From: Bacteroidaceae bacterium
Lineage (GTDB): Bacteria; Bacteroidota; Bacteroidia; Bacteroidales; Bacteroidaceae
NCBI GenBank assembly: GCA_017557635.1
Contig: JAFYYH010000022.1
Coordinates: forward strand, 124,001-188,000
DNA length: 64,000 nucleotides
Direction: 5' to 3'
The notes beneath the pieces were generated by a model that saw only the letters and a list, made by a program, of their open reading frames with translations, did not search any database and was not told the DNA's origin. Both the position numbers and the translations under genes were made by a program. Shown piece after piece: positions 14,328 through 28,510 of this stretch (the first letter of the stretch is position 1; each line of letters starts with the position of its first letter).

Positions 14328-15161
14328 TCATATGGGCCGATACACGAGAAATCCCACTCTCAAGTTAGAGAATAAAAATGTCCCAACTAGGCGGTAAAAC
14401 TGGCACAATACCGGGCTCTTTCCGTCTAATCTCAGTTTAATTCTGTCATTGTTGTAATACTTGATATACTCATCCAGTGCTGCTTCAAAGTCATCTATAG
14501 TATTCCAACGCTGCAAATATAGCAACTCGGACTTCATAAGTCCCAAAAAGTTCTCCATCAAGGAGTTATCCAGGCAATTGCCTTTGCGTGACATGCTTTG
14601 GATTAATCCGTTTGTTTTCAGCTTGTTCTGATACATCTTATGCTGATAATGCCACCCCTGATCTGAATGGATTATAAGTCCCTTAGGCGGGTTTTCACGG
14701 GCAATAGCATCATCAACCATTTTCATAACAAGATTGAGATCCGGATGACGTGATCTTGCGTATGCCACAATCTCACCGTTGTTCATATCCAATATGGGTG
14801 AGAGATATCCTTTTTCATCATTTATCTTGTATTCAGTGATGTCAGTCGCCCATTTCTGGTTAATGCCTGTAGTCTTAAAATCACGAGCAATCACATTTGG
14901 TGCCACTCTACCTATCTCTCCTTTGTACGACCGATACTTGACACGTTTGATTTTGGCTTTCAACCCCATATCGGCCATTAATCTCTGGACAGTTTTATGG
15001 TTTATGGGGAAGCCTTCATTCCTTAACTGAAGTGCGACTCTTCTGTATCCGTATCGGCCTTTATGATGCTCATAGATGGAGTAAATCCGTTCTTTTATGA
15101 CATCATATTTGTCCGGTACGGATAACTGAGACACATGATAATAGAAGGTCGATTTGGCCAT
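14328..15161 (-). CDS. IS3-family transposase OrfB (DDE integrase core)
   Basis: Catalytic part of an IS150-like transposase, 277 residues from the ATG at 15161. It has the helix region STFYYHVSQL, then GRYGYRRVALQLRNEG, and the DDE triad in WATDITEY, IIHSDQGWHY and SLMENFLG. The frame stays open upstream of the ATG (RDWAEAILELRHNH) back to the orfA frameshift site, so the functional protein is probably the OrfAB fusion. The last 25 residues (YRLVGTFLFSNLRVGF) are not typical for the family, which normally ends soon after SPVQYR. This suggests that the end of the element has been replaced. Confidence 0.88.
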   Translation of the reverse strand: MAKSTFYYHVSQLSVPDKYDVIKERIYSIYEHHKGRYGYRRVALQLRNEGFPINHKTVQRLMADMGLKAKIKRVKYRSYKGEIGRVAPNVIARDFKTTGINQKWATDITEYKINDEKGYLSPILDMNNGEIVAYARSRHPDLNLVMKMVDDAIARENPPKGLIIHSDQGWHYQHKMYQNKLKTNGLIQSMSRKGNCLDNSLMENFLGLMKSELLYLQRWNTIDDFEAALDEYIKYYNNDRIKLRLDGKSPVLCQFYRLVGTFLFSNLRVGFLVYRPI

Positions 15162-15202
15162 CCTGCGTATCTTGAGCAGTAATTCAAGACGATGATTGTG
15201 CC

Positions 15203-15685
15203 TTAGTTCGAGGATGGCTTCTGCCCAGTCCCTTTTCGACGGGCATCCCTTGCTTCGACTAAGGCTTTCACTTTTTTTAGTAGCGCGTTCTCGGCCTCCA
15301 GATACTCATTACGGGCTCGGAGTTCTTCTAACTCAGTAAGTGCAGCCTTATTATTACGCTTAGCCATTGGACGTTTCTGTTTACCTTCTGTATTACACCA
15401 GCTATAGATTGCTGCTTCAGAGACATCGTGTTTTATGCAGATGTCCTTCAAAGGTAAAACTTTTCCCATCAAGTCAGCTTTAATTGACGCTATTTCTGAC
15501 TCAGTTACATGATGTGCCACTTTTCGCCTTAGGCCTTCTTCTCCATAATAGATGTAACGCTTACGCCAGATATAAAGGCGTGACCTGACGATTTTCATCT
15601 CTCTGGAGAGCTGTCTCGATGGATAGCCCTCATCAAGAAGCTTCATGTATTTTAGCTTCTCCTCAAACGAATGATGCTTTGACAT
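15203..15685 (-). CDS. IS3-family transposase OrfA (helix-turn-helix)
   Basis: DNA-binding subunit, 160 residues. It carries two helix-turn-helix-like segments: SFEEKLKYMKLLDEGYPSRQ...RLYIWRKRY and LKDICIKHDVSEAAIYSW. A leucine-zipper-like coiled coil (ELEELRARNEYLEAENALLKK) precedes the slippery run. The A-AAA-G sequence at about 15230-15238 (minus strand) would allow -1 frameshifting to join this frame to orfB. OrfA alone would act as a regulator of transposition. Confidence 0.88.
   Translation of the reverse strand: MSKHHSFEEKLKYMKLLDEGYPSRQLSREMKIVRSRLYIWRKRYIYYGEEGLRRKVAHHVTESEIASIKADLMGKVLPLKDICIKHDVSEAAIYSWCNTEGKQKRPMAKRNNKAALTELEELRARNEYLEAENALLKKVKALVEARDARRKGTGQKPSSN
15230..15238 (-). 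promoter_or_regulatory. Programmed -1 frameshift site of the IS element
   Basis: CGAAAAGGG on the minus strand, near the end of orfA. Slipping back one base at AAAAG enters the open orfB frame (AGG GAC TGG GCA), with no stop codon before the DDE domain. Confidence 0.6.
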
Positions 15686-16167: not shown

Positions 16168-16611
16168 TTATTCTGGCTTTGCTATCTTTAGATCTTCACC
16201 TTGATTAATATCAACCTTTATTAAAGGAAGATAATATTTCGAGAACGGCGTATTTTCAGTCTTTGCACACAGCACGCCTCGAACAGTACTTACTGCTATC
16301 CCAGCCAAATTATTGATAAACTCTTTCGGCAAAACTACATCTTTAGAATCAACTTCGGACAGTTGTTTCCAGCAGTCTGATTCCACTAAATAATGACAAA
16401 AAACTTCGGCAACCATAAAAACTTTACCTTTCTCCAAGAACTGGACATTTGCACCAACAGCTATAGCGTGTTTTTGATAATTGGTCTTTATGGGAATACC
16501 GATTTTTACCTCAATCTCATCAGACAAAGGTTCAAATGGTGTCGCAAATTGCTCAATAGAGACCCCTCTTAAATTATACTTAATATCCTTCATTTCTTTC
16601 CTGAAATACAT
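16168..16611 (-). CDS. SecB-like chaperone of a toxin-antitoxin-chaperone module
   Basis: A 147-residue SecB-fold protein. The C-terminal half has the SecB-like pattern VVLPKEFINNLAGIAVSTVRGVLCAKTENTPFSKYYLPLI. SecB-like chaperones in TAC modules protect and fold an unstable antitoxin, as Rv1957 does for HigA1 in Mycobacterium tuberculosis. The ATG overlaps the stop codon of the antitoxin gene by one base (TAATG), and the order toxin-antitoxin-chaperone matches known TAC operons. It is not the housekeeping SecB, which is generally lacking in this group. Confidence 0.75.
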   Translation of the reverse strand: MYFRKEMKDIKYNLRGVSIEQFATPFEPLSDEIEVKIGIPIKTNYQKHAIAVGANVQFLEKGKVFMVAEVFCHYLVESDCWKQLSEVDSKDVVLPKEFINNLAGIAVSTVRGVLCAKTENTPFSKYYLPLIKVDINQGEDLKIAKPE

Positions 16612-17054
16612 TATGAAACTGGACGACTAGACCTATTAACTCCTTTATATAATAAGGGGTTAATTCTAAGGACTTCGTCTGGATGGCCAATGTAATCAAA
16701 ACAAATAGATTGAACAGAATCTATTTTAACCTGTATAGTGTTGTATGGAGACCACATAGTTTCTATTTGATTCTGACTGGGAACCTCAAGAAGCTTGATT
16801 CCTAATAATCTTCCATAACGAATAACAGTCGAAACCTTCATATCAAGGTCTTGACCATGGAGAAATTTATTTATGTACTGCGGGCTGACATTCATCTTTT
16901 CCGCCATTTCCTTCTGAGAAAGATGGTGATCTTTCATATAGCGGACAATCCTGAGGACAATTAGCCTGCACTCAAGGAGATCTTCTTCAACCTCTCTTTC
17001 TCGCCTTGCGTCCTCTATCCATGAAGTGACTGTTCTCTTTCTATTATTTGCCAT
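16611..17054 (-). CDS. HigA-like XRE antitoxin of the TAC module
   Basis: A 147-residue protein with a Cro/C1-type helix-turn-helix at about residues 37-75 (MKDHHLSQKEMAEKMNVSPQ, then INKFLHGQ). A C-terminal extension of some 60 residues ends in RINPLLYKGVNRSSRPVS. Chaperone-addicted antitoxins carry such an extension as the chaperone-binding segment, so the long tail fits. It lies 19 bases after the toxin gene and overlaps the chaperone start. It probably represses its own operon. Confidence 0.75.
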   Translation of the reverse strand: MANNRKRTVTSWIEDARREREVEEDLLECRLIVLRIVRYMKDHHLSQKEMAEKMNVSPQYINKFLHGQDLDMKVSTVIRYGRLLGIKLLEVPSQNQIETMWSPYNTIQVKIDSVQSICFDYIGHPDEVLRINPLLYKGVNRSSRPVS

Positions 17055-18726: not shown

Positions 18727-19656
18727 CTATTCATCATCATGAAAGAGTTCACTCTGTTTTTCGGGACTCATTGAAATCTTCGTATATTCTGGATATGATA
18801 TCACCTTTGTTATGTTATACTTTGGTTTTCCTCCTGTTGCGACATCTGTAACTACCGTCTCAAAGTCGGCCACTATAGTATCCCCTTTTCCAAATGCTAT
18901 TCCTTCAACATTCATAGTCTCTAAGAAATTTGCATCTGTCATTCTAGCTGTATAGCTTTTATCATTGATCCTTACTTTCCAGTTTGATGGCTCATCTGAG
19001 AAAACGGGAGAAACTATCTCCATTGTAAGATTAGTCTGAATGAGGCTTTCCGTTTCTTCTTCTAACCTATATTCAGCCACCTTTGATAGAACCGTTTTTG
19101 ATATACTTAAGTTTTCTCTTTCACCGTTCTTCTTTTCATATGTGACTGAAATATCTCTAATGCTATCATTATGAATAACTAAACTGGCAATAGTGCTCAG
19201 TGCTCCCGCTGTTGTCTTGTTTTCCAATAGTTTTTTATTCTCGACCTGTACTATATCATTATTGGCTTCTATCTCATGAGTTTTCTGCTCATTATTCAAC
19301 AAACTTGTAACATAATTACCAATTAACGTAACAACGACTCCAACCACATAAGGATTATTCACAACTTTCTTTACCCAAATAGGTATCTTGAAACTGCCTT
19401 CTTCAAAAGGAACAACATCAAGTTCAATAGTGTTATAGCCAACTGCATACTTTTCGTTTAGGGTCTGATTAATACCTCTAAACAGCCGATCCGTATTCTT
19501 TAGATATTCTATTAACTCAGCCACCGGCACATGACTATCCTGTACATTCAACGTCAACTGAAAGAATTCTTTCAATTCAACAATCTCGTTATTATCATCC
19601 ATCCTTTTTAAACTATATCTTGGTTTATGACTAGTTATGTCACTCAATAATGCCAT
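18727..19656 (-). CDS. Hypothetical protein with a central membrane segment
   Basis: A 309-residue protein with no recognised family. The N-terminal about 90 residues are soluble (LTLNVQDSHVPVAELIEYL, FRGINQTL). A hydrophobic stretch follows (NPYVVGVVVTLIGNYVTSLL), then an acidic linker and a beta-rich C-terminal domain with FSDEPSNWKVRINDKSYTARM. A -7 box at 19678-19685 suggests the ATG at 19656 or one shortly downstream at 19602 (MDDNNEIVEL). The beta domain could be an extracytosolic or ligand-binding module; no catalytic site is visible. Confidence 0.6.
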   Translation of the reverse strand: MALLSDITSHKPRYSLKRMDDNNEIVELKEFFQLTLNVQDSHVPVAELIEYLKNTDRLFRGINQTLNEKYAVGYNTIELDVVPFEEGSFKIPIWVKKVVNNPYVVGVVVTLIGNYVTSLLNNEQKTHEIEANNDIVQVENKKLLENKTTAGALSTIASLVIHNDSIRDISVTYEKKNGERENLSISKTVLSKVAEYRLEEETESLIQTNLTMEIVSPVFSDEPSNWKVRINDKSYTARMTDANFLETMNVEGIAFGKGDTIVADFETVVTDVATGGKPKYNITKVISYPEYTKISMSPEKQSELFHDDE

Positions 19657-20840: not shown

Positions 20841-21869
20841 TCACAGTTCACCAGGCAAATAGAACTGATCGCATTTGGTAATAGGTTCAATATCCACATG
20901 TAGATCCGCAGGCAGCACAGCTTTCATAGATTGGATTACAGCATCCGCATTCATATCCTGAACATAAATCTTTCTCAGTCGTTGCATGCCCCCAAATATA
21001 AGTCTGTCAGTTTGTCTATTAAAGAATGGGAAAGAATAGCCTACTACAACAACATATTCAGTATCTTCAGTAGTTGCTTTAATGGTATTTAGCATATTCT
21101 CCTGGTTTGGAGAATCTTCCCACGCAAAAGAAAGATGCGTTTTAAAATGAATGCCTAAACCGCTCAAGCTACTCTTAATATGACTATAGATAATGATCAG
21201 TTGCAATTCAACAGGCAGTCGTTTATCCGCCAATATACTTGTAACAATGGGAGAATCTACAAAAGTGGCAGAACCATTCAATTTAATTATTCTTCCTGTA
21301 TCTGATAGTTCAGGCCATTTACTCTCCCTATTCTTCTCATATACGATTAATCCTGGTCTCTCCCGATATGAACGGAATGCCATTTCTATTTGTGAATCAT
21401 AATTCCATGACAGTATACTAATATCACGTGGTATATTCAGGTATGGCATATCAAGGATATTAGCCAGGAACGTATCGTAACGGTTATCCGGATTATTTAC
21501 AATCTGTTCCCATATGAAGAAAGTACATAAAACATCTTTAAGTGTTTCAAAACCTTTTTCATTACCTGTCAAATATAACTTACGAGCATATGTATCAATT
21601 GTAGCATGGCTTTGAATACCTTGAATAAGGAAATCAATATCATTCAGCATATCCTCCTTATTTCTCTCAACATTGTCTGAGTTAGTTAAAAATCGATCCC
21701 AGAAATTTATATCGCCATCCGGTATATTAACATTAGAAATGTATTCACGAAAAAAATCAAATCTATCTGGTATTTCCGATACAATAGGCAGTCCTTCCAA
21801 AATAAGCCCCTGATCATTCCGTTTTCCAGCGCTAGCACCAGCGCCTAGGAAATAAATTGTCTTACTCAT
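20841..21869 (-). CDS. SIR2-like domain protein, probable defence protein
   Basis: A 342-residue SIR2-family protein. The Rossmann start TIYFLGAGASAG (GAGAS at residues 9-13), SWNYD (154-158) and the late VVVGYSFPFFNRQTD segment are as in NAD-consuming SIR2-like defence proteins. Where those have KLHG, this protein has KLNGS (196-200), so the usual catalytic histidine is apparently Asn. It may be inactive, use another residue, or only bind NAD. The start is the ATG at 21869; the 24 codons upstream lack the fold. A -7 box lies at 21939-21946. It is downstream of the STAND-TIR operon but has its own promoter. Confidence 0.75.
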   Translation of the reverse strand: MSKTIYFLGAGASAGKRNDQGLILEGLPIVSEIPDRFDFFREYISNVNIPDGDINFWDRFLTNSDNVERNKEDMLNDIDFLIQGIQSHATIDTYARKLYLTGNEKGFETLKDVLCTFFIWEQIVNNPDNRYDTFLANILDMPYLNIPRDISILSWNYDSQIEMAFRSYRERPGLIVYEKNRESKWPELSDTGRIIKLNGSATFVDSPIVTSILADKRLPVELQLIIIYSHIKSSLSGLGIHFKTHLSFAWEDSPNQENMLNTIKATTEDTEYVVVVGYSFPFFNRQTDRLIFGGMQRLRKIYVQDMNADAVIQSMKAVLPADLHVDIEPITKCDQFYLPGEL

Positions 21870-22136: not shown

Positions 22137-23045
22137 TCAGCATCCTCCATTCCAAATAATTTCATTCCGGACAACCTCATATTGAGTAAGGAAATCATTA
22201 TTCTTTATTAATGAGGGGCTACAACACCAGTTCTTCATACGGCATATCAAGTCCATTGTGGTTTTAGCATCTCGATGTTTCAACACATGCTGATAAAATG
22301 CCTTCTGTTTAGCACCGACATAGCCTTTATGATAACCAATAATCACTTTAAGCTTATTGCTTTCTGCCATCGGTAGCAGTGTAATGAACAATGCGTTAAG
22401 TGGTCGAATCTCTCTATTTCCGCCTTCATAGGAATATGCCATCTCGTCTTCATCAACCACTGCATCCGAACCGCAAAAAACCAAAAGCGGGAAATCTATA
22501 GCGCAAAATTCATATTCGCCATATGACTTATTTTGTATATCTTGTAGCATCTGATTGAGTGTGCAGTCAAAACGCTCAATTACATGCTTAGAATATTCAC
22601 GCTGTATGTCAAAGGCCCATCCTTCGAATCCGCTATTCTGATAGAACAATTGCCTTTTCTCTTCAAGAAAACGCTGTCCGGCAAGGCCGCGATAGCTGAA
22701 CAATAAGAATGTATTTGCTGATTCAAAATCAATATCCCCATATTCTATATCCTTGAATATGGAATTGTCATGATCGGAACAAAACAGAGGCATGATTAAT
22801 GCTTGCTTAACAGGCAATAGATTTTCTTTTAAATCACTGAAATCTCCAGACCGTGGATCAATCTCATTATCCTTAATTTGATAAACCATTCCATCCTCAG
22901 CTATTGAAGCGACAAATGGATGTTGTTGGACAAGATGGCAATCACAGGTTGTCTTTGAACAACCTGGATACAAACACTTGTAGTGATTCTTACGGGCCTT
23001 ATCGCGTGCTTTCCCAAAGGAATCCCAAAAGTCTGGATTAAGCAT
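22137..23045 (-). CDS. Zinc-ribbon/HNH-like protein, third gene of the STAND-TIR operon
   Basis: A 302-residue protein with a putative metal site near its N terminus: CLYPGCSKTTCDCHLVQQ (residues 24-41), then VASIAEDG and the later PLFCSDHDNSIFKDIE. The C-PGC...CHLVQ...FC-xxHD layout suggests a treble-clef zinc module of the kind used by HNH-like proteins. The other 200 residues are unrecognised (FLLFSYRGLAGQRFLEEKRQ, IPLNALF-like stretch). It begins 2 bases after the TIR gene stop, so it belongs to the same transcript. It could be a nuclease effector, a nucleic-acid sensor or a regulator of the TIR-NTPase pair. Confidence 0.6.
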   Translation of the reverse strand: MLNPDFWDSFGKARDKARKNHYKCLYPGCSKTTCDCHLVQQHPFVASIAEDGMVYQIKDNEIDPRSGDFSDLKENLLPVKQALIMPLFCSDHDNSIFKDIEYGDIDFESANTFLLFSYRGLAGQRFLEEKRQLFYQNSGFEGWAFDIQREYSKHVIERFDCTLNQMLQDIQNKSYGEYEFCAIDFPLLVFCGSDAVVDEDEMAYSYEGGNREIRPLNALFITLLPMAESNKLKVIIGYHKGYVGAKQKAFYQHVLKHRDAKTTMDLICRMKNWCCSPSLIKNNDFLTQYEVVRNEIIWNGGC

Positions 23046-23047
23046 TT

Positions 23048-24538
23048 TTATCTAGATTCAAATAGTTTCTTTAAAGTAGCCTTAACATCCGTCTCACACT
23101 CTTCCACAGACACCATCGGTTTCGGGTAAACAGTCAGTGTATTCCCTGGGTGTGCTGCACTTTGACTTTCCGTAACATTCACCCTCATAACACTTTTTAG
23201 TGCACTTACATCATCTTTAGCCACAGTAACATCAGAATCATCATAGAAAAACACTTTAATATATGGTTTGTCAAACGCATACCTTATTTCCGTACTGAAT
23301 CTATTCCTTTTAGGCATAACTGATTCAAAGACAATTGGACCATTATGGTTTTCAACATATATTGAGTTAGCACCATTCTGTATGATAGTCCTGCTCGGTG
23401 TAGGCTCAGCACTTCCAGACGGTACAAACTTACTACTGAATGAAGCCTCGAATTTAGGTAGCGTTTTCTTTAGTTCTTCCATCAAGAGAGCCGCATCATT
23501 CTCTATCATCTTCTCATAATTGCCCGTATTAATATGAACAAGAAAGTCCCAAAATTCATCTATGTATTTTAGTATATCATTGATCTTCCGTGTTTCGTCC
23601 TGCATGAAATCAGAATTGCCCTCAGACTTCATTTGTTCCAGTTTCCGATTCTTTTCATTTATCCAATAATCTTTCACCATCTTCAATCCGTCGCCATTTC
23701 TTGGAATACCTTCTAAATCTACTACAGGAAAGAGACGCTCCTTCACATTTCCCATCTTGAACATCTGAACCATCTCAAACATACAGTCTAATGACTTCAG
23801 ATAGTCATTAATTACAAAAATAATGACCCTCTCAGACTCCCCTATCTCCTTTTCATATTCCACGATATTATCACGGTATTTTATACCATCAGCATCTATC
23901 GAAAAGGCTATACTGTTATTCTTTAGTCCCCTCTTGATTGACTCTACAGCCTCATCATGACCTGGGTCGTGTTTATACGAGATATGTACCTTACTCAAAC
24001 TATCCATTGTTTTGTATGCTAAATTTTCTTTTATTGATAATCTATTAATTATTACGTCACAATCTGTCACTTTTCCATTTTGCTCCTTGTTGATAATAAC
24101 AGTCGTTACCTTATGGTATGCAAGAGACGTCTGAAGAGTTGACAATTCATTATGGCTGAACGAGGTTAAATCTTTTTCACTTTGCAAATGGAGAACAGTC
24201 CTTTCCTTAGTGCATAAACACCTCATTATTCGGATAACCAGGTTGAACAACAGCACGTCACGCTCACGACCATTCACTATAGCTCTCAACCATTGTTCTC
24301 TTTGCTCGTCTATTACTGGATTATTGCATTTGTAACTGAGTCCGGCAACAAACATTTCAAAAGTCGAGCCTCCGACAGCGGGAACAAGGATTTTCTCATA
24401 CAGACTATTCCCCGTTTGCCTCATTACCGCTTCAATATCCTCATCACTCAAGTCAGTGTCTATCAAATATAAACCAGACTTAAGCGAAGAATCCATCAAA
24501 AAATGCCGCAGCCTCCCCTCTTGAAACTCCTTATTCAT
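23048..24538 (-). CDS. TIR-domain protein paired with a STAND NTPase
   Basis: A 496-residue protein. Residues 1-170 form an unrecognised N-terminal domain. A TIR domain spans about 182-275: SKVHISYKHDPGHDEAV, IVEYEKEIGESERVIIFV, and LDCMFEMVQ with the likely catalytic Glu255, followed by RLFPVV. Bacterial TIR domains of this kind degrade NAD or make cyclic ADP-ribose variants. Residues 385-404 carry the motif IIQNGANSIYVENHNGPIVF, which also occurs at the N terminus of the NTPase. The gene overlaps the NTPase end by 8 bases (ATGAATAA) and is followed 2 bases later by the zinc-ribbon gene. Confidence 0.75.
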   Translation of the reverse strand: MNKEFQEGRLRHFLMDSSLKSGLYLIDTDLSDEDIEAVMRQTGNSLYEKILVPAVGGSTFEMFVAGLSYKCNNPVIDEQREQWLRAIVNGRERDVLLFNLVIRIMRCLCTKERTVLHLQSEKDLTSFSHNELSTLQTSLAYHKVTTVIINKEQNGKVTDCDVIINRLSIKENLAYKTMDSLSKVHISYKHDPGHDEAVESIKRGLKNNSIAFSIDADGIKYRDNIVEYEKEIGESERVIIFVINDYLKSLDCMFEMVQMFKMGNVKERLFPVVDLEGIPRNGDGLKMVKDYWINEKNRKLEQMKSEGNSDFMQDETRKINDILKYIDEFWDFLVHINTGNYEKMIENDAALLMEELKKTLPKFEASFSSKFVPSGSAEPTPSRTIIQNGANSIYVENHNGPIVFESVMPKRNRFSTEIRYAFDKPYIKVFFYDDSDVTVAKDDVSALKSVMRVNVTESQSAAHPGNTLTVYPKPMVSVEECETDVKATLKKLFESR

Positions 24539-27500
24539 TGTCGAGCTTGTTCATGAAGTTGGATATCAAGTATTTGTTATTCGGATTCTTCATCGTGGAG
24601 TCAATCAGATCCATTGCATGTTCCAATGTATCCTGATAGCCGCTGTCATTGAACGACTTGATTCCATTATATGACTGGATAATCACATCAACTATCTTAT
24701 TCCAGATGAAGTAGTCTTCGGGCGTATTCTCTTCTAGTATTATCTCCAGCCATTTTAGTGTCTGTACAGGATCTTTGATGGCATAACCTGCCAGATAATC
24801 TACAAAGGCTCTGATTTGATGCTTGCTCACAGGCGCGTATACGTATGCTTCGGTTATCTGTATCTGCATCACATCAGGCCATTTGTCGAGATTATGGAAA
24901 AGCTGGTCAAATGCACTGCCCATTTCTGGTGTATTAAACTGTGGTTCCATAAACCGAAGGATATAAACGACAGCCTCATCGTTTACATTCTCGTCCAGCC
25001 TGTAAAGGAATTGTAGTAGCGATATTCTTGCTTCCTCACTGCTGTCACACATCGAATCCAACAGTGCTTTCAACCGCTTATCTTGCTTATTACGCATCCA
25101 AGCAAGCCATAAAATGATTACTTGTTCCTTATAGCATTCTGGGCATTCTGCCGCGTGCTGGAAGAAATCCATCAATTCTTTCACGGCATAATTCACAAAA
25201 TAAACCAACGGATTATAGTTATGCACAGGCATCGACATAAGTCTGGCATCGTAGTCATGCATCAACTTCTTAAACAGATCCACATTTCTGTTCTTGTCCA
25301 CGAAGTTCAGTGCAGCCATGTTCAGCAGAATAGCAGCCCTGGTATATACCGATGCTGTATCTGCCACACTCTCTATGGTATCTAGTATTGCTTTCCCATA
25401 ACGTTTGTCCTTGGCACACTCCACCAACATATATCCGGCATTTCCTCTAGCCTGGTTAATACCCACATTATATACATCTTTGTCCTCTTTGTATCTGTCT
25501 TCCTTTGGCTCCGCAGAATACTTCAGGGCATCACACAAAAAATGGAACAAGTCATCTGTCACATTCCCGCTCTTCACCCAGTCACCTACGGCAAACAATA
25601 AGGAGTGGATACTGAATCCTCTTATATCGGTATTAAGATTGTGCCCAATAGCATCAAGAATTCCATTTAGCACATGCTCTGCTTCATTTATTCTCCCGGC
25701 ATCTATTAGTCCCTGCATTCCGGCTACGGGATATGCTATTTGTATTTTGTCACATGCAATAGCATCATCTATCAGCCCCAAATACTTGTCGGGATTCTCT
25801 TGCACTACAATTCTGAACAACTGGCACTGACCTGTCAACGATGGCTTATCCCAAGCAAAGGGATTGGTAGTATATTTTAACATCGACTTGAGCCAGGTTT
25901 TGCAATTCATCTTAAGCCCTTGCTCCTTAGTCAGCGATGTCCATCCTGAATGCATAGAAGATTTAGAAGGTAGGTCATTCTCCAGACGCTGTTTCTTAAA
26001 CTTCCTTTTAATCCTTTCCTTCTCATAGTATGCTTCCCACGAAAGTCTGCGCAGGTCATCATCTGGCAAAACATACAAAGCCTTACCTTTATGCAAATCA
26101 ATATCCAGAATCGGATGCCCCCACTGTAGCCTCATCTCCATATTCTCCTTCCCATACAGTTTTCTCTCGCCTCTGTCTTCAAGGTTATTCGCAACCTCTA
26201 TGATATTCTTTTTCTGTTCATCAGTCCATAGTAGATAATTTTTTTTCAATGCCTCTATCGCCTGATACTCTACCCAAGAGGGAGCATTCGACAAAACACG
26301 CCTGTTCTTAAGAATAACATACGCATCTTCATTGAACAATTCAGGATGTGCAGTATAGACCTGAAGAGCAATATACACAAAACCCTCGTGTTTGCTCTGG
26401 CTGAAGACTTTCAGATAGTGCTTTGTCCGCTCGCTGTTCACATCCTGAAGCATGTCGTCTAAGATAATATTCACAGCATCTTCCGAGAAATTTGACACGA
26501 AGTGTCCTCCTCTTGTCCTTTGGAAACTGAAGAATTCATACGAATTATAAATATCTGCTCCTTCTATTTCATACTTTGTGGCTTCATAAACCAGTGTCAG
26601 TATATCTACTAGCAGTTGAATGCCTGTTTCTCGATTCCGTTTGAGTAGTTCTTCAAATAGCAACTCCTCTTCATGGTTATAGTTTAGTGTATGAAGCCCT
26701 GGCTTTTCTTTCATAGCCAATTGTAATCTGACATTCTCCTTAAACTCCTCACATACAAAGTCTGGATTTGTCTTAAGGATGTTTCTGAGCAAATGAATGT
26801 ATTCCAGAGGACATCTGTTCTTCACTAACTTATTATAGAAACCAATAAGTTTATCGCCATTCTCGTTCAGTTCAAAAGTTTGAAGCAGTTTTCCGATATA
26901 CTGGCAGTCTTCTTCATTTTTGTAGTCTAATGAACGTTCTACTTCATCCAATACGACCCTGGCGTCTGGCCAAAGTGTCCGTTGGCACATTAGCATCACC
27001 TTCTCTTTATACGTGGTTGGCTGTGCCTTCCAACCACCCTTTTTCTTAATGGTGTCCCAAACCGCATGAAACCAACTCGCTGTATGAACGGTCTCGAAGA
27101 TCACATCCATATAGGACTTTTCGTCATACACTCTTCTTTCTATCAGGCCAATCTCCTCTTTCAGAGGCATTTCAAAATAAGCCATATTGCTTAGTGCAAG
27201 GGATTTCAGGTGATAACGATAAGTGTCTTTCTCATCCTCATTCTTCGCAAAAAGAAGTTGTTCAACGGTGTTAATGTATTGCTTGGCATCCTTTTCTCGA
27301 AGGAATGTCAAAATACTCTTCACGGCAGCTCTGGAGAAAAGCCCTTGATGCTGTCCTTTCAGATTATCTAATAGATTATTTCCTTTCTCAGTAAACCGCC
27401 TTGCATAGACATAATCAAACAAAGTCTGGTGGAAGAACTGTATTTGGTTGCTTTTCGTCAACAGTAGCCATCCGCATGTAAACAGGTATCTAAGTTCTGC

Positions 27501-28463
27501 AATGTACTCCGTCTCAAAAGCCCTGATGTGTACTGACAGTTCTTGACGCTCATACATCGCCGTTACCAAAGTATCCAACAGTGCCAGTAATCTATCCTTG
27601 TCTACTTTGCGTTCGCTGTCATCCGTGATATACTTACTCCACAATTGATGATAAAGCAGGTCTGTCGACAGAGGATCAGTCATCTGTTCTTGTCGATAGT
27701 CAACCTTCAAATACAAATATAAATGTAGGGGATTCCCTAAAAACCACAGCAGTCGGTCACTGAGGCGTTCGTCTCTGTGATTTTCTATTAGTATCTCTTC
27801 GACCTTTTCCTTTGGGAGTTCTTTCAGTTCCCATTTATGTTTTACCTGTAACTGGTCAAGCAAAGGATCGTATTCCAGGTCATAAGGCCTACAAGAAATC
27901 ACCACTCTGACATGTGGAATAATTATAACTCTGCTTATCAATTTGAGCAATGAACGCAAAGGAGTACGATTGGAGGACAAGGAAAGTGACAAAGCATCTA
28001 TCTGGTCTATCAGAAGTACCACGCGTTTATACTGCTGTGCTAGTTCTCCTATGACCACCTCTATTGGCTTTGCTAGATGAAGTTTCTTCCCCAAATCATC
28101 TGTATCAACAAACTCCACCTGATCAGACTTCAGTCCAAGCAGTTGGTATTCGGGATTCGCCTGAAGTTCTACCAACAGGTCGTGCATTACCACAGATTTT
28201 CCTATACCTGCTTTTCCATAAAGCAGAGCCAGCCTGGAAGTTTTCTCAGAGGAAGCTTCACTTTCAACCCATTCCTTTATTTTGCCAACTTCTGATCTAG
28301 GGATGGAAGGCTTGATTTTGGGGGCATACTCATACAATTCAAAAGAGCCATCTCTAAAAGCAGAGACGGCTTCTTCTACATACTCCCCCATATAGATGTC
28401 ACCATTTTGCTTCTCTATATAGATGGACTTCTCCCCGTATTGTTGAATAATTCTTTCAGCCAT
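24531..28463 (-). CDS. Large STAND/NACHT-like NTPase, probable phage sensor
   Basis: A 1310-residue signal-transduction ATPase. An N-terminal motif (residues 5-26, IIQQYGEKSIYIEKQNGDIY...) is followed by a P-loop GKAGIGKS (83-90) and Walker B LLIDQIDAL (150-158). A sensor-like ISCRPYDLEYD comes next, then winged-helix-like sequence, and some 900 residues of helical repeats like those of bacterial NLR-type sensors. I start at the ATG at 28463: a GGAAG lies 7 bases upstream, and a GTG five codons earlier is the alternative. A -7 box lies at 28503-28510. No effector domain is fused; the cotranscribed TIR protein is the likely effector. Confidence 0.75.
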   Translation of the reverse strand: MAERIIQQYGEKSIYIEKQNGDIYMGEYVEEAVSAFRDGSFELYEYAPKIKPSIPRSEVGKIKEWVESEASSEKTSRLALLYGKAGIGKSVVMHDLLVELQANPEYQLLGLKSDQVEFVDTDDLGKKLHLAKPIEVVIGELAQQYKRVVLLIDQIDALSLSLSSNRTPLRSLLKLISRVIIIPHVRVVISCRPYDLEYDPLLDQLQVKHKWELKELPKEKVEEILIENHRDERLSDRLLWFLGNPLHLYLYLKVDYRQEQMTDPLSTDLLYHQLWSKYITDDSERKVDKDRLLALLDTLVTAMYERQELSVHIRAFETEYIAELRYLFTCGWLLLTKSNQIQFFHQTLFDYVYARRFTEKGNNLLDNLKGQHQGLFSRAAVKSILTFLREKDAKQYINTVEQLLFAKNEDEKDTYRYHLKSLALSNMAYFEMPLKEEIGLIERRVYDEKSYMDVIFETVHTASWFHAVWDTIKKKGGWKAQPTTYKEKVMLMCQRTLWPDARVVLDEVERSLDYKNEEDCQYIGKLLQTFELNENGDKLIGFYNKLVKNRCPLEYIHLLRNILKTNPDFVCEEFKENVRLQLAMKEKPGLHTLNYNHEEELLFEELLKRNRETGIQLLVDILTLVYEATKYEIEGADIYNSYEFFSFQRTRGGHFVSNFSEDAVNIILDDMLQDVNSERTKHYLKVFSQSKHEGFVYIALQVYTAHPELFNEDAYVILKNRRVLSNAPSWVEYQAIEALKKNYLLWTDEQKKNIIEVANNLEDRGERKLYGKENMEMRLQWGHPILDIDLHKGKALYVLPDDDLRRLSWEAYYEKERIKRKFKKQRLENDLPSKSSMHSGWTSLTKEQGLKMNCKTWLKSMLKYTTNPFAWDKPSLTGQCQLFRIVVQENPDKYLGLIDDAIACDKIQIAYPVAGMQGLIDAGRINEAEHVLNGILDAIGHNLNTDIRGFSIHSLLFAVGDWVKSGNVTDDLFHFLCDALKYSAEPKEDRYKEDKDVYNVGINQARGNAGYMLVECAKDKRYGKAILDTIESVADTASVYTRAAILLNMAALNFVDKNRNVDLFKKLMHDYDARLMSMPVHNYNPLVYFVNYAVKELMDFFQHAAECPECYKEQVIILWLAWMRNKQDKRLKALLDSMCDSSEEARISLLQFLYRLDENVNDEAVVYILRFMEPQFNTPEMGSAFDQLFHNLDKWPDVMQIQITEAYVYAPVSKHQIRAFVDYLAGYAIKDPVQTLKWLEIILEENTPEDYFIWNKIVDVIIQSYNGIKSFNDSGYQDTLEHAMDLIDSTMKNPNNKYLISNFMNKLDNE

Positions 28464-28502
28464 ATTGTTCACTTCCACAGATTATCATGCTTATACTCCC
28501 CA

Positions 28503-28510
28503 CACAAAGC
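28503..28510 (-). promoter_or_regulatory. -7 promoter box of the STAND-TIR operon
   Basis: TAGCTTTG then TGTGGGG on the minus strand; 39 bases upstream of the chosen ATG. Confidence 0.5.

What the first reader, a model, noticed from the sequence alone, without database searches (positions are those of the whole stretch)
22137..28510. Compact STAND-NTPase / TIR / zinc-ribbon operon: candidate new antiphage system
A 1310-residue STAND NTPase with helical repeats, a TIR protein and a zinc-ribbon/HNH-like protein are joined by an 8-base overlap and a 2-base gap under one promoter. NLR-like sensors usually carry the effector in the same chain. Here the effector is a separate TIR protein with its own unrecognised N-terminal domain, and a third protein is present. 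I do not recognise this exact combination among named systems.
Basis: partly seen in the sequence, partly recalled or inferred. Interest (0 to 1): 0.8.

Follow-up and report, generated by a model that had tools for sequence, protein, structure and literature searches.

The report
NLR-like sensor plugged to separate killers
Two adjacent genes in a gut-type bacterium appear to encode an alarm protein and a separate self-killing enzyme that carry the same short peptide tag, and relatives carry that tag on other kinds of protein, which suggests a plug-in immune switch against viruses that can now be tested.

Summary
The NACHT/STAND sensor and the TIR protein are real; the third protein matches no searched family, so its 'HNH/zinc-ribbon' label is unsupported. 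The core is the STAND-TIR pair: in 13 of 13 close loci (window included) with readable downstream sequence, a TIR gene follows the STAND. The third gene was not found at the other loci.

The STAND N-terminus (residues 5-25) and the TIR protein (384-404) share a 21-residue motif, roughly xxNQxGxKSIYIExNxGxIxI. In 295 genomes of the order it scores strongly only in these two genes, in two genomes. Relatives carry it on a PLD-like protein and on a 61-residue membrane-type peptide. Some motif-less relatives of the sensor have domains fused at that place instead, one clearly a CHAT protease.

Best reading: phage sensing assembles the STAND, whose motifs template the effector motifs, amyloid-style, and switch on the TIR NADase. 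The layout matches published bacterial amyloid signalling (BASS) and effector-associated-domain (EAD) logic, so this is a new variant of a known kind. Defence, NAD loss and amyloid are untested.

The parts
24531..28463 (-). STAND/NACHT sensor, 1310 aa
   Evidence: ORF; Pfam NACHT 7.6e-12
28389..28451 (-). Coupling motif, sensor copy (STAND residues 5-25, IIQQYGEKSIYIEKQNGDIYM)
   Evidence: profile built without the window rows: 23.8 bits
27768..28232 (-). NACHT domain (STAND residues 78-232)
28194..28217 (-). Walker A, GKAGIGKS (STAND residues 83-90)
23048..24538 (-). TIR effector protein, 496 aa; start overlaps the STAND stop by 8 bases
   Evidence: the same overlap in 10 of 12 relatives
24023..24538 (-). 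Effector N-terminal domain (residues 1-172), AAA+-like fold by predicted structure only, no P-loop
23504..23995 (-). TIR domain (about residues 182-345)
23774..23776 (-). Putative catalytic Glu255 of the TIR domain
   Evidence: invariant in 10 of 10 aligned effectors
23327..23389 (-). Coupling motif, effector copy (TIR protein residues 384-404, TIIQNGANSIYVENHNGPIVF)
   Evidence: profile built without the window rows: 18.1 bits
23051..23326 (-). C-terminal extension of the TIR protein after the motif (residues 405-496), seen only in the window
   Evidence: no match in the fetched loci; the other effectors end at the motif
22137..23045 (-). Third protein, 302 aa; linked gene, probably not core
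   Evidence: 2-base gap; no motif; not found at the other STAND loci

Best explanation
It is a two-gene immune switch. The STAND/NACHT protein is the sensor: its long C-terminal region recognises a phage-derived cue (inferred), and it oligomerises with ATP through the NACHT domain (inferred from the family). Its 21-residue N-terminal motif then meets the same motif on the TIR protein. The match is homotypic, most likely as a beta-arch amyloid template of the BASS type (inferred). Crowding of TIR domains switches on NAD cleavage with Glu255, and the infected cell stops growing or dies (inferred from other TIR systems). The shared motif, its position and the lack of strong copies outside the operons in the genomes searched are shown here. 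Interchangeable effectors on the same motif are strongly suggested. Amyloid formation, NADase activity and phage defence are not shown.
Against: No experiment and no amyloid predictor was run. The motif-pair matching test is strong over all 14 pairs (6 of 20000 permutations) but drops to 669 of 20000 once L035, L036 and L039 are left out, and shared ancestry is not removed. The STAND-side profile misses the TIR copies of L035 and L036, and so does the joint profile. On the STAND side the motif (54% identity) is hardly better kept than the residues after it (49%) and less than the NACHT domain (63%). The window's TIR protein is the only one with 92 residues after the motif, an odd place for a templating tail. 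The B. fragilis STAND copy is weak (9.5 bits; 17.1). Five of 10 motif-less relatives show no fused effector domain. No phage trigger is known.
Confidence: 0.6

Rival explanations
1. The motif couples sensor and effector, but by ordinary beta-strand pairing or a small globular contact (an EAD-like adaptor), not by amyloid templating.
For: EADs follow the same one-copy-in-sensor, one-copy-in-effector rule; no amyloid test was made here.
Against: EADs are described as small domains, most of them alpha-helical; this is 21 residues, with no confident structure predicted in isolation. The best-scoring hit outside the operons in 395 phylum genomes lies in a protein that looks by eye like curlin repeats (one weak hit of 20.9 bits).
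Confidence: 0.28
2. The motif is a docking site for a common third partner or ligand, not for the other copy.
For: The two copies are not identical, and each side has its own preferences at the last positions.
Against: No strong copy lies outside the operons in the genomes searched; in B. fragilis both copies share an unusual NIS variant.
Confidence: 0.08
3. All three genes form one system, the third protein being a second effector or regulator.
For: 2-base gap to the TIR gene on the same strand; two relatives do have a second motif-bearing protein after the TIR (L026, L031).
Against: The third protein has no motif; no homologue at the other fetched STAND loci; 2 of 295 order genomes have a homologue, its own included; the one in G002 and those in Shinella and Rhizobium have no STAND or TIR gene seen or named beside them, although the Rhizobium one is closely followed by a GNAT gene.
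Confidence: 0.1
4. The pair responds to plasmids, stress or kin cues rather than phage.
For: No phage trigger known; one member lies on a plasmid and L039 follows a gene that looks by eye like a mobilisation gene.
Against: The bacterial NACHT and TIR papers that my searches listed deal mostly with phage defence; the window has other defence-candidate genes nearby.
Confidence: 0.2

Closest known systems
BASS: bacterial amyloid signalling sequences (Dyrka 2020; known here through passages of PMC7889193, PMC8086366, PMC9815663 and PMC12261475; the original is not held)
   Same: Short motif at the N-terminus of an NLR and at the C-terminus of the protein from the adjacent or overlapping gene; TIR domains are named among the less frequent partners.
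   Different: Reported mainly from filamentous actinobacteria and cyanobacteria with BELL-domain partners; here Bacteroidales, with TIR, a PLD-like protein and a tiny membrane-type peptide. Whether the motif is one of BASS1-10 could not be tested.
Effector-associated domains / bDLD3 STAND + TIR pairs (PMC7159879, PMC8195603, passages read)
   Same: One adaptor copy on the core sensor, another on an enzymatic effector, often in the next gene; a STAND-TIR pair with bDLD3 is described.
   Different: The adaptor here is a 21-residue motif, not a Death-like or other small domain; the sensor is a NACHT protein in a two-gene operon, not part of a MoxR-vWA ternary system.
bNACHT antiphage proteins (PMC12169576, passages read; Kibby 2023 seen only as a reference)
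   Same: NACHT sensor with the effector position at the N-terminus.
   Different: In the four described there the effector is in the same chain or not discernible; here it is a separate protein.
PADLOC PDC-M54A (candidate system)
   Same: Match of STAND residues 287-407 (4.9e-7).
   Different: The best stretch covers about 120 of 1310 residues; no match for the TIR protein.

Membership tests
NACHT/STAND NTPases | NACHT domain with Walker A and B | tested here: met
   Pfam NACHT 7.6e-12, above cut-off; GKAGIGKS and LLIDQIDAL
TIR NADases | TIR fold | tested here: met
TIR NADases | Catalytic glutamate | tested here: met
   Glu255 invariant in 10 of 10; its role is recalled from other TIRs
TIR NADases | NAD cleavage | not testable with these tools
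   needs an assay
BASS NLR-effector pairs | Same short motif at the NLR N-terminus and the C-terminus of the neighbour's product | tested here: met
   15 of 15 STANDs and 13 of 13 TIR products by pattern, two of the 13 being pieces of interrupted genes; in the window 92 residues follow the effector copy
BASS NLR-effector pairs | Motif belongs to one of BASS1-10 | not testable with these tools
   the profiles and the original paper are not held
BASS NLR-effector pairs | Amyloid formation and seeding | not testable with these tools
   needs biochemistry
BASS NLR-effector pairs | BELL domain on the partner | tested here: inconclusive
   the partner carries TIR; no BELL profile was run; BELL is described as usual but not obligatory
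EAD-coupled systems | Shared small, mostly helical adaptor domain | tested here: inconclusive
   no Pfam family at either copy at E<=1; the motif is 21 residues; no EAD profiles were run by name
HNH nucleases (third gene) | HNH profile match | tested here: not met
   no family at E<=1 in Pfam, NCBIfam or PADLOC
AAA+ ATPases (effector N-terminal domain) | AAA+-like fold | tested here: inconclusive
AAA+ ATPases (effector N-terminal domain) | Walker A P-loop | tested here: not met
   GxxGxGK[ST] absent in 9 of 9

The most novel reading that the evidence does not exclude
A private plug-and-socket code in non-filamentous gut and oral Bacteroidales: one 21-residue amyloid-type motif lets a NACHT sensor drive unrelated effectors (TIR NADase, PLD nuclease, membrane peptide), sometimes two from one operon, with motif variants keeping each pair private. 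The effector's P-loop-less AAA+-like N-terminal domain, missing in some relatives, acts as a brake or docking mimic of the sensor.
Probability: 0.3. Interest if true: 0.8.

Novelty: new variant of a known kind. Interest (0 to 1): 0.6.

Why it matters
The review whose passages I read (PMC7889193) says that the outcome of amyloid NLR signalling in bacteria remains to be explored and calls the biological role of these cascades a major blind spot. This pair is small, sits in commensal-type Bacteroidales rather than filamentous bacteria, and offers natural effector swaps (TIR, PLD-like, membrane-type peptide) on one motif, so motif deletions and swaps would test the coupling idea, and its link to phage defence, directly.

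Tried and rejected
Three-gene system: dropped, see the rivals. Relatives on viruses: viral-contig scans found none for the STAND, third protein, P0003 and TIR, and phage records none for the TIR, third protein and STAND; P0003 was not searched in phage records. These scans start from short peptide patterns or fixed E-values and can miss distant kin. Weak motif or P0003 hits elsewhere were looked at and judged chance. The N-terminal domain as a sequence relative of the sensor's NACHT: no support. Foldseek alone gave no match at E<=0.001; the fold statements rest on VIA-align of its candidates. The TIR-effector profile against PDB sequences gave none at 0.01. Promoter pattern: none upstream of the STAND. 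Folding of the STAND C-terminal region was never accepted, so 'helical repeats' is untested.

Rows dropped: the L035 and L036 TIR motifs were left out of A3 (26 of 28 rows); A5 has 30 rows, without the L036 TIR and L037 STAND copies. The interrupted L029 and L037 TIR genes, and the S. copri effector, were left out of A4. L044-L046 were left out of the tree because the P-loop pattern missed them. The motif of L039 was added to the matching test but not to the profile.

Full report
WHAT IS THERE. The three ORFs, the 8-base overlap and the 2-base gap are as described. The sensor has a NACHT domain and the second protein a TIR domain. The third protein matches nothing in Pfam, NCBIfam or PADLOC at E<=1. 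The window lies in a 2.44-Mb, 24-contig assembly.

THE SHARED MOTIF. Reading the ends of both proteins shows a common 21-residue motif, sensor residues 5-25 and effector residues 384-404. Relatives were found on a Segatella copri plasmid and in 13 close loci, L025-L037, of a genome scan that starts from two short peptide patterns and so gives a lower bound. All 15 close STANDs, the window's included, carry the motif by pattern; four have it after N-terminal extensions, at residue 129 (two), 171 or 188. Two contigs, L030 and L032, end inside the STAND. In the other 13 loci a TIR gene follows and carries the motif; in 12 of 13 it is at the very C-terminus, and in the window 92 residues follow. 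In two of them, L029 and L037, the TIR gene is interrupted. In L027 and L033 the TIR protein lacks the N-terminal domain, so TIR plus motif is the smallest form seen. The system is rare: in 295 order genomes 15 have a TIR match, but only the window's genome and G087 have it in full; in 301 genomes of the family only the window's own has a close STAND, the other four matches being 24-26% identical and without the motif.

SPECIFICITY. The cross-profile tests, the test without the window's own rows, the 295-genome scan, the 19-genome scan and the scan of 1958 ORFs from 23 loci (26 hits of at least 9.5 bits, all in a STAND or an adjacent effector, the next at 5.0) agree. Most of those 26 proteins gave rows to the profile; four did not (the L026 and L031 third proteins and both B. 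fragilis proteins). The phylum scan of 395 genomes gave the two window genes and three weak hits: one in a protein that looks by eye like curlin repeats, the other two judged chance. In the S. copri plasmid record the only two hits are the two genes. Against: one search misses the TIR copies of L035 and L036, and lists one hit of 16.9 bits in the L029 genome far from the locus.

OTHER PROTEINS ON THE SAME MOTIF. L026 has, after the TIR gene, a 395-residue protein with the motif in the middle and a PLD-like domain after it (PLDc_2 1.5e-21). L031 has a relative of its first half ending in the motif. In Bacteroides fragilis Q1F2 (L039) a more distant STAND (27% identity) is followed by a 61-residue protein, a hydrophobic stretch (Kyte-Doolittle 1.83) and then the motif; both partners share the NIS variant. 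No relative of this small protein was found beyond its motif part. Of 10 motif-less relatives of the sensor scanned at the N-terminus, L044 has a clear CHAT domain, L040 and L042 weak Mrr matches, L068 and L070 weak DUF4365 matches, and five nothing of the kind. The P-loop starts at 214-286 in the nine motif-less STANDs in the tree, at 83-93 in motif-bearing ones without extension, and at 208-269 in the four with an extension. On that tree the motif label needs 2 changes (0 of 500 shuffles as low), but the place of L039 is unsure.

CO-INHERITANCE. The 8-base overlap is kept in 10 of 12 relatives; the two exceptions are those without the N-terminal domain. STAND and TIR distances correlate (r 0.90, n 11, 1 of 10000 permutations; 0.49, n 9, 94 of 10000 without L035 and L036). 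Motif pairs match their partners better than chance over 14 pairs (6 of 20000), but only modestly once L035, L036 and L039 are removed (669 of 20000); ancestry is a confounder. The motif stands out from its surroundings on the effector side (54% against 32% in the linker) but hardly on the sensor side (54% against 49%).

NEIGHBOURHOOD. On the third-gene side lie a weak SIR2-like protein, a PDC-S42-like gene and a PDC-M64-like pair and a transposase pair. On the other side are sugar-transferase and aminotransferase genes.

MECHANISM AND RANK. The best account is a STAND sensor whose assembled N-terminal motifs template the effector's motif and cluster TIR domains for NAD cleavage. The pairing principle is published for BASS and EADs, so the kind is known. 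The motif family, the Bacteroidales setting and the three kinds of partner on one motif were not met in the listings and passages I saw (searches), which cover open-licence papers only; the original BASS paper was not available. Recalled and not from a call: the role of the TIR glutamate, the Bacteroidetes promoter consensus, the look of curlin repeats and of the mobilisation gene, and the general STAND activation scheme.

Noticed in passing
window 20841-21869 (-): Protein with a FLGAGASAG motif and a weak SIR2_2 match (0.0072, below cut-off): a possible second NAD-targeting defence gene, 267 bases from the third gene.
   Followed up: partly
window 16168-17054 (-): Two adjacent small genes match the PADLOC candidate system PDC-M64.
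   Followed up: partly
window 18727-19620 (-): Protein matching the PADLOC candidate PDC-S42 (2.8e-17).
   Followed up: partly
window 14328-15685 (-): Two-ORF transposase (rve and HTH_Tnp_1), probably an insertion sequence, among these genes.
   Followed up: no
L031:7620-8003 and L032:7617-8000: STAND proteins with an N-terminal extension holding strongly hydrophobic stretches before the motif: a possible membrane-anchored sensor.
   Followed up: partly
L035:7488-7997 and the same part of L036: STAND proteins with a different N-terminal extension of about 170-190 residues before the motif.
   Followed up: no
L029:11905-13118 and L037:11947-13159: The TIR gene is interrupted in Prevotella pallens and Porphyromonas pasteri; the motif-bearing piece stays open.
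   Followed up: no
L073:1351-2166: A protein that looks like curlin repeats gives the best motif score outside the operons in the phylum scan (20.9 bits).
   Followed up: partly
L023:4443-5921: A DUF2971 protein gene lies just upstream of the S. copri STAND-TIR pair.
   Followed up: no
window 23051-23326 (-): The window's TIR protein alone has a 92-residue tail, predicted as a small alpha/beta domain, after the motif.
   Followed up: partly
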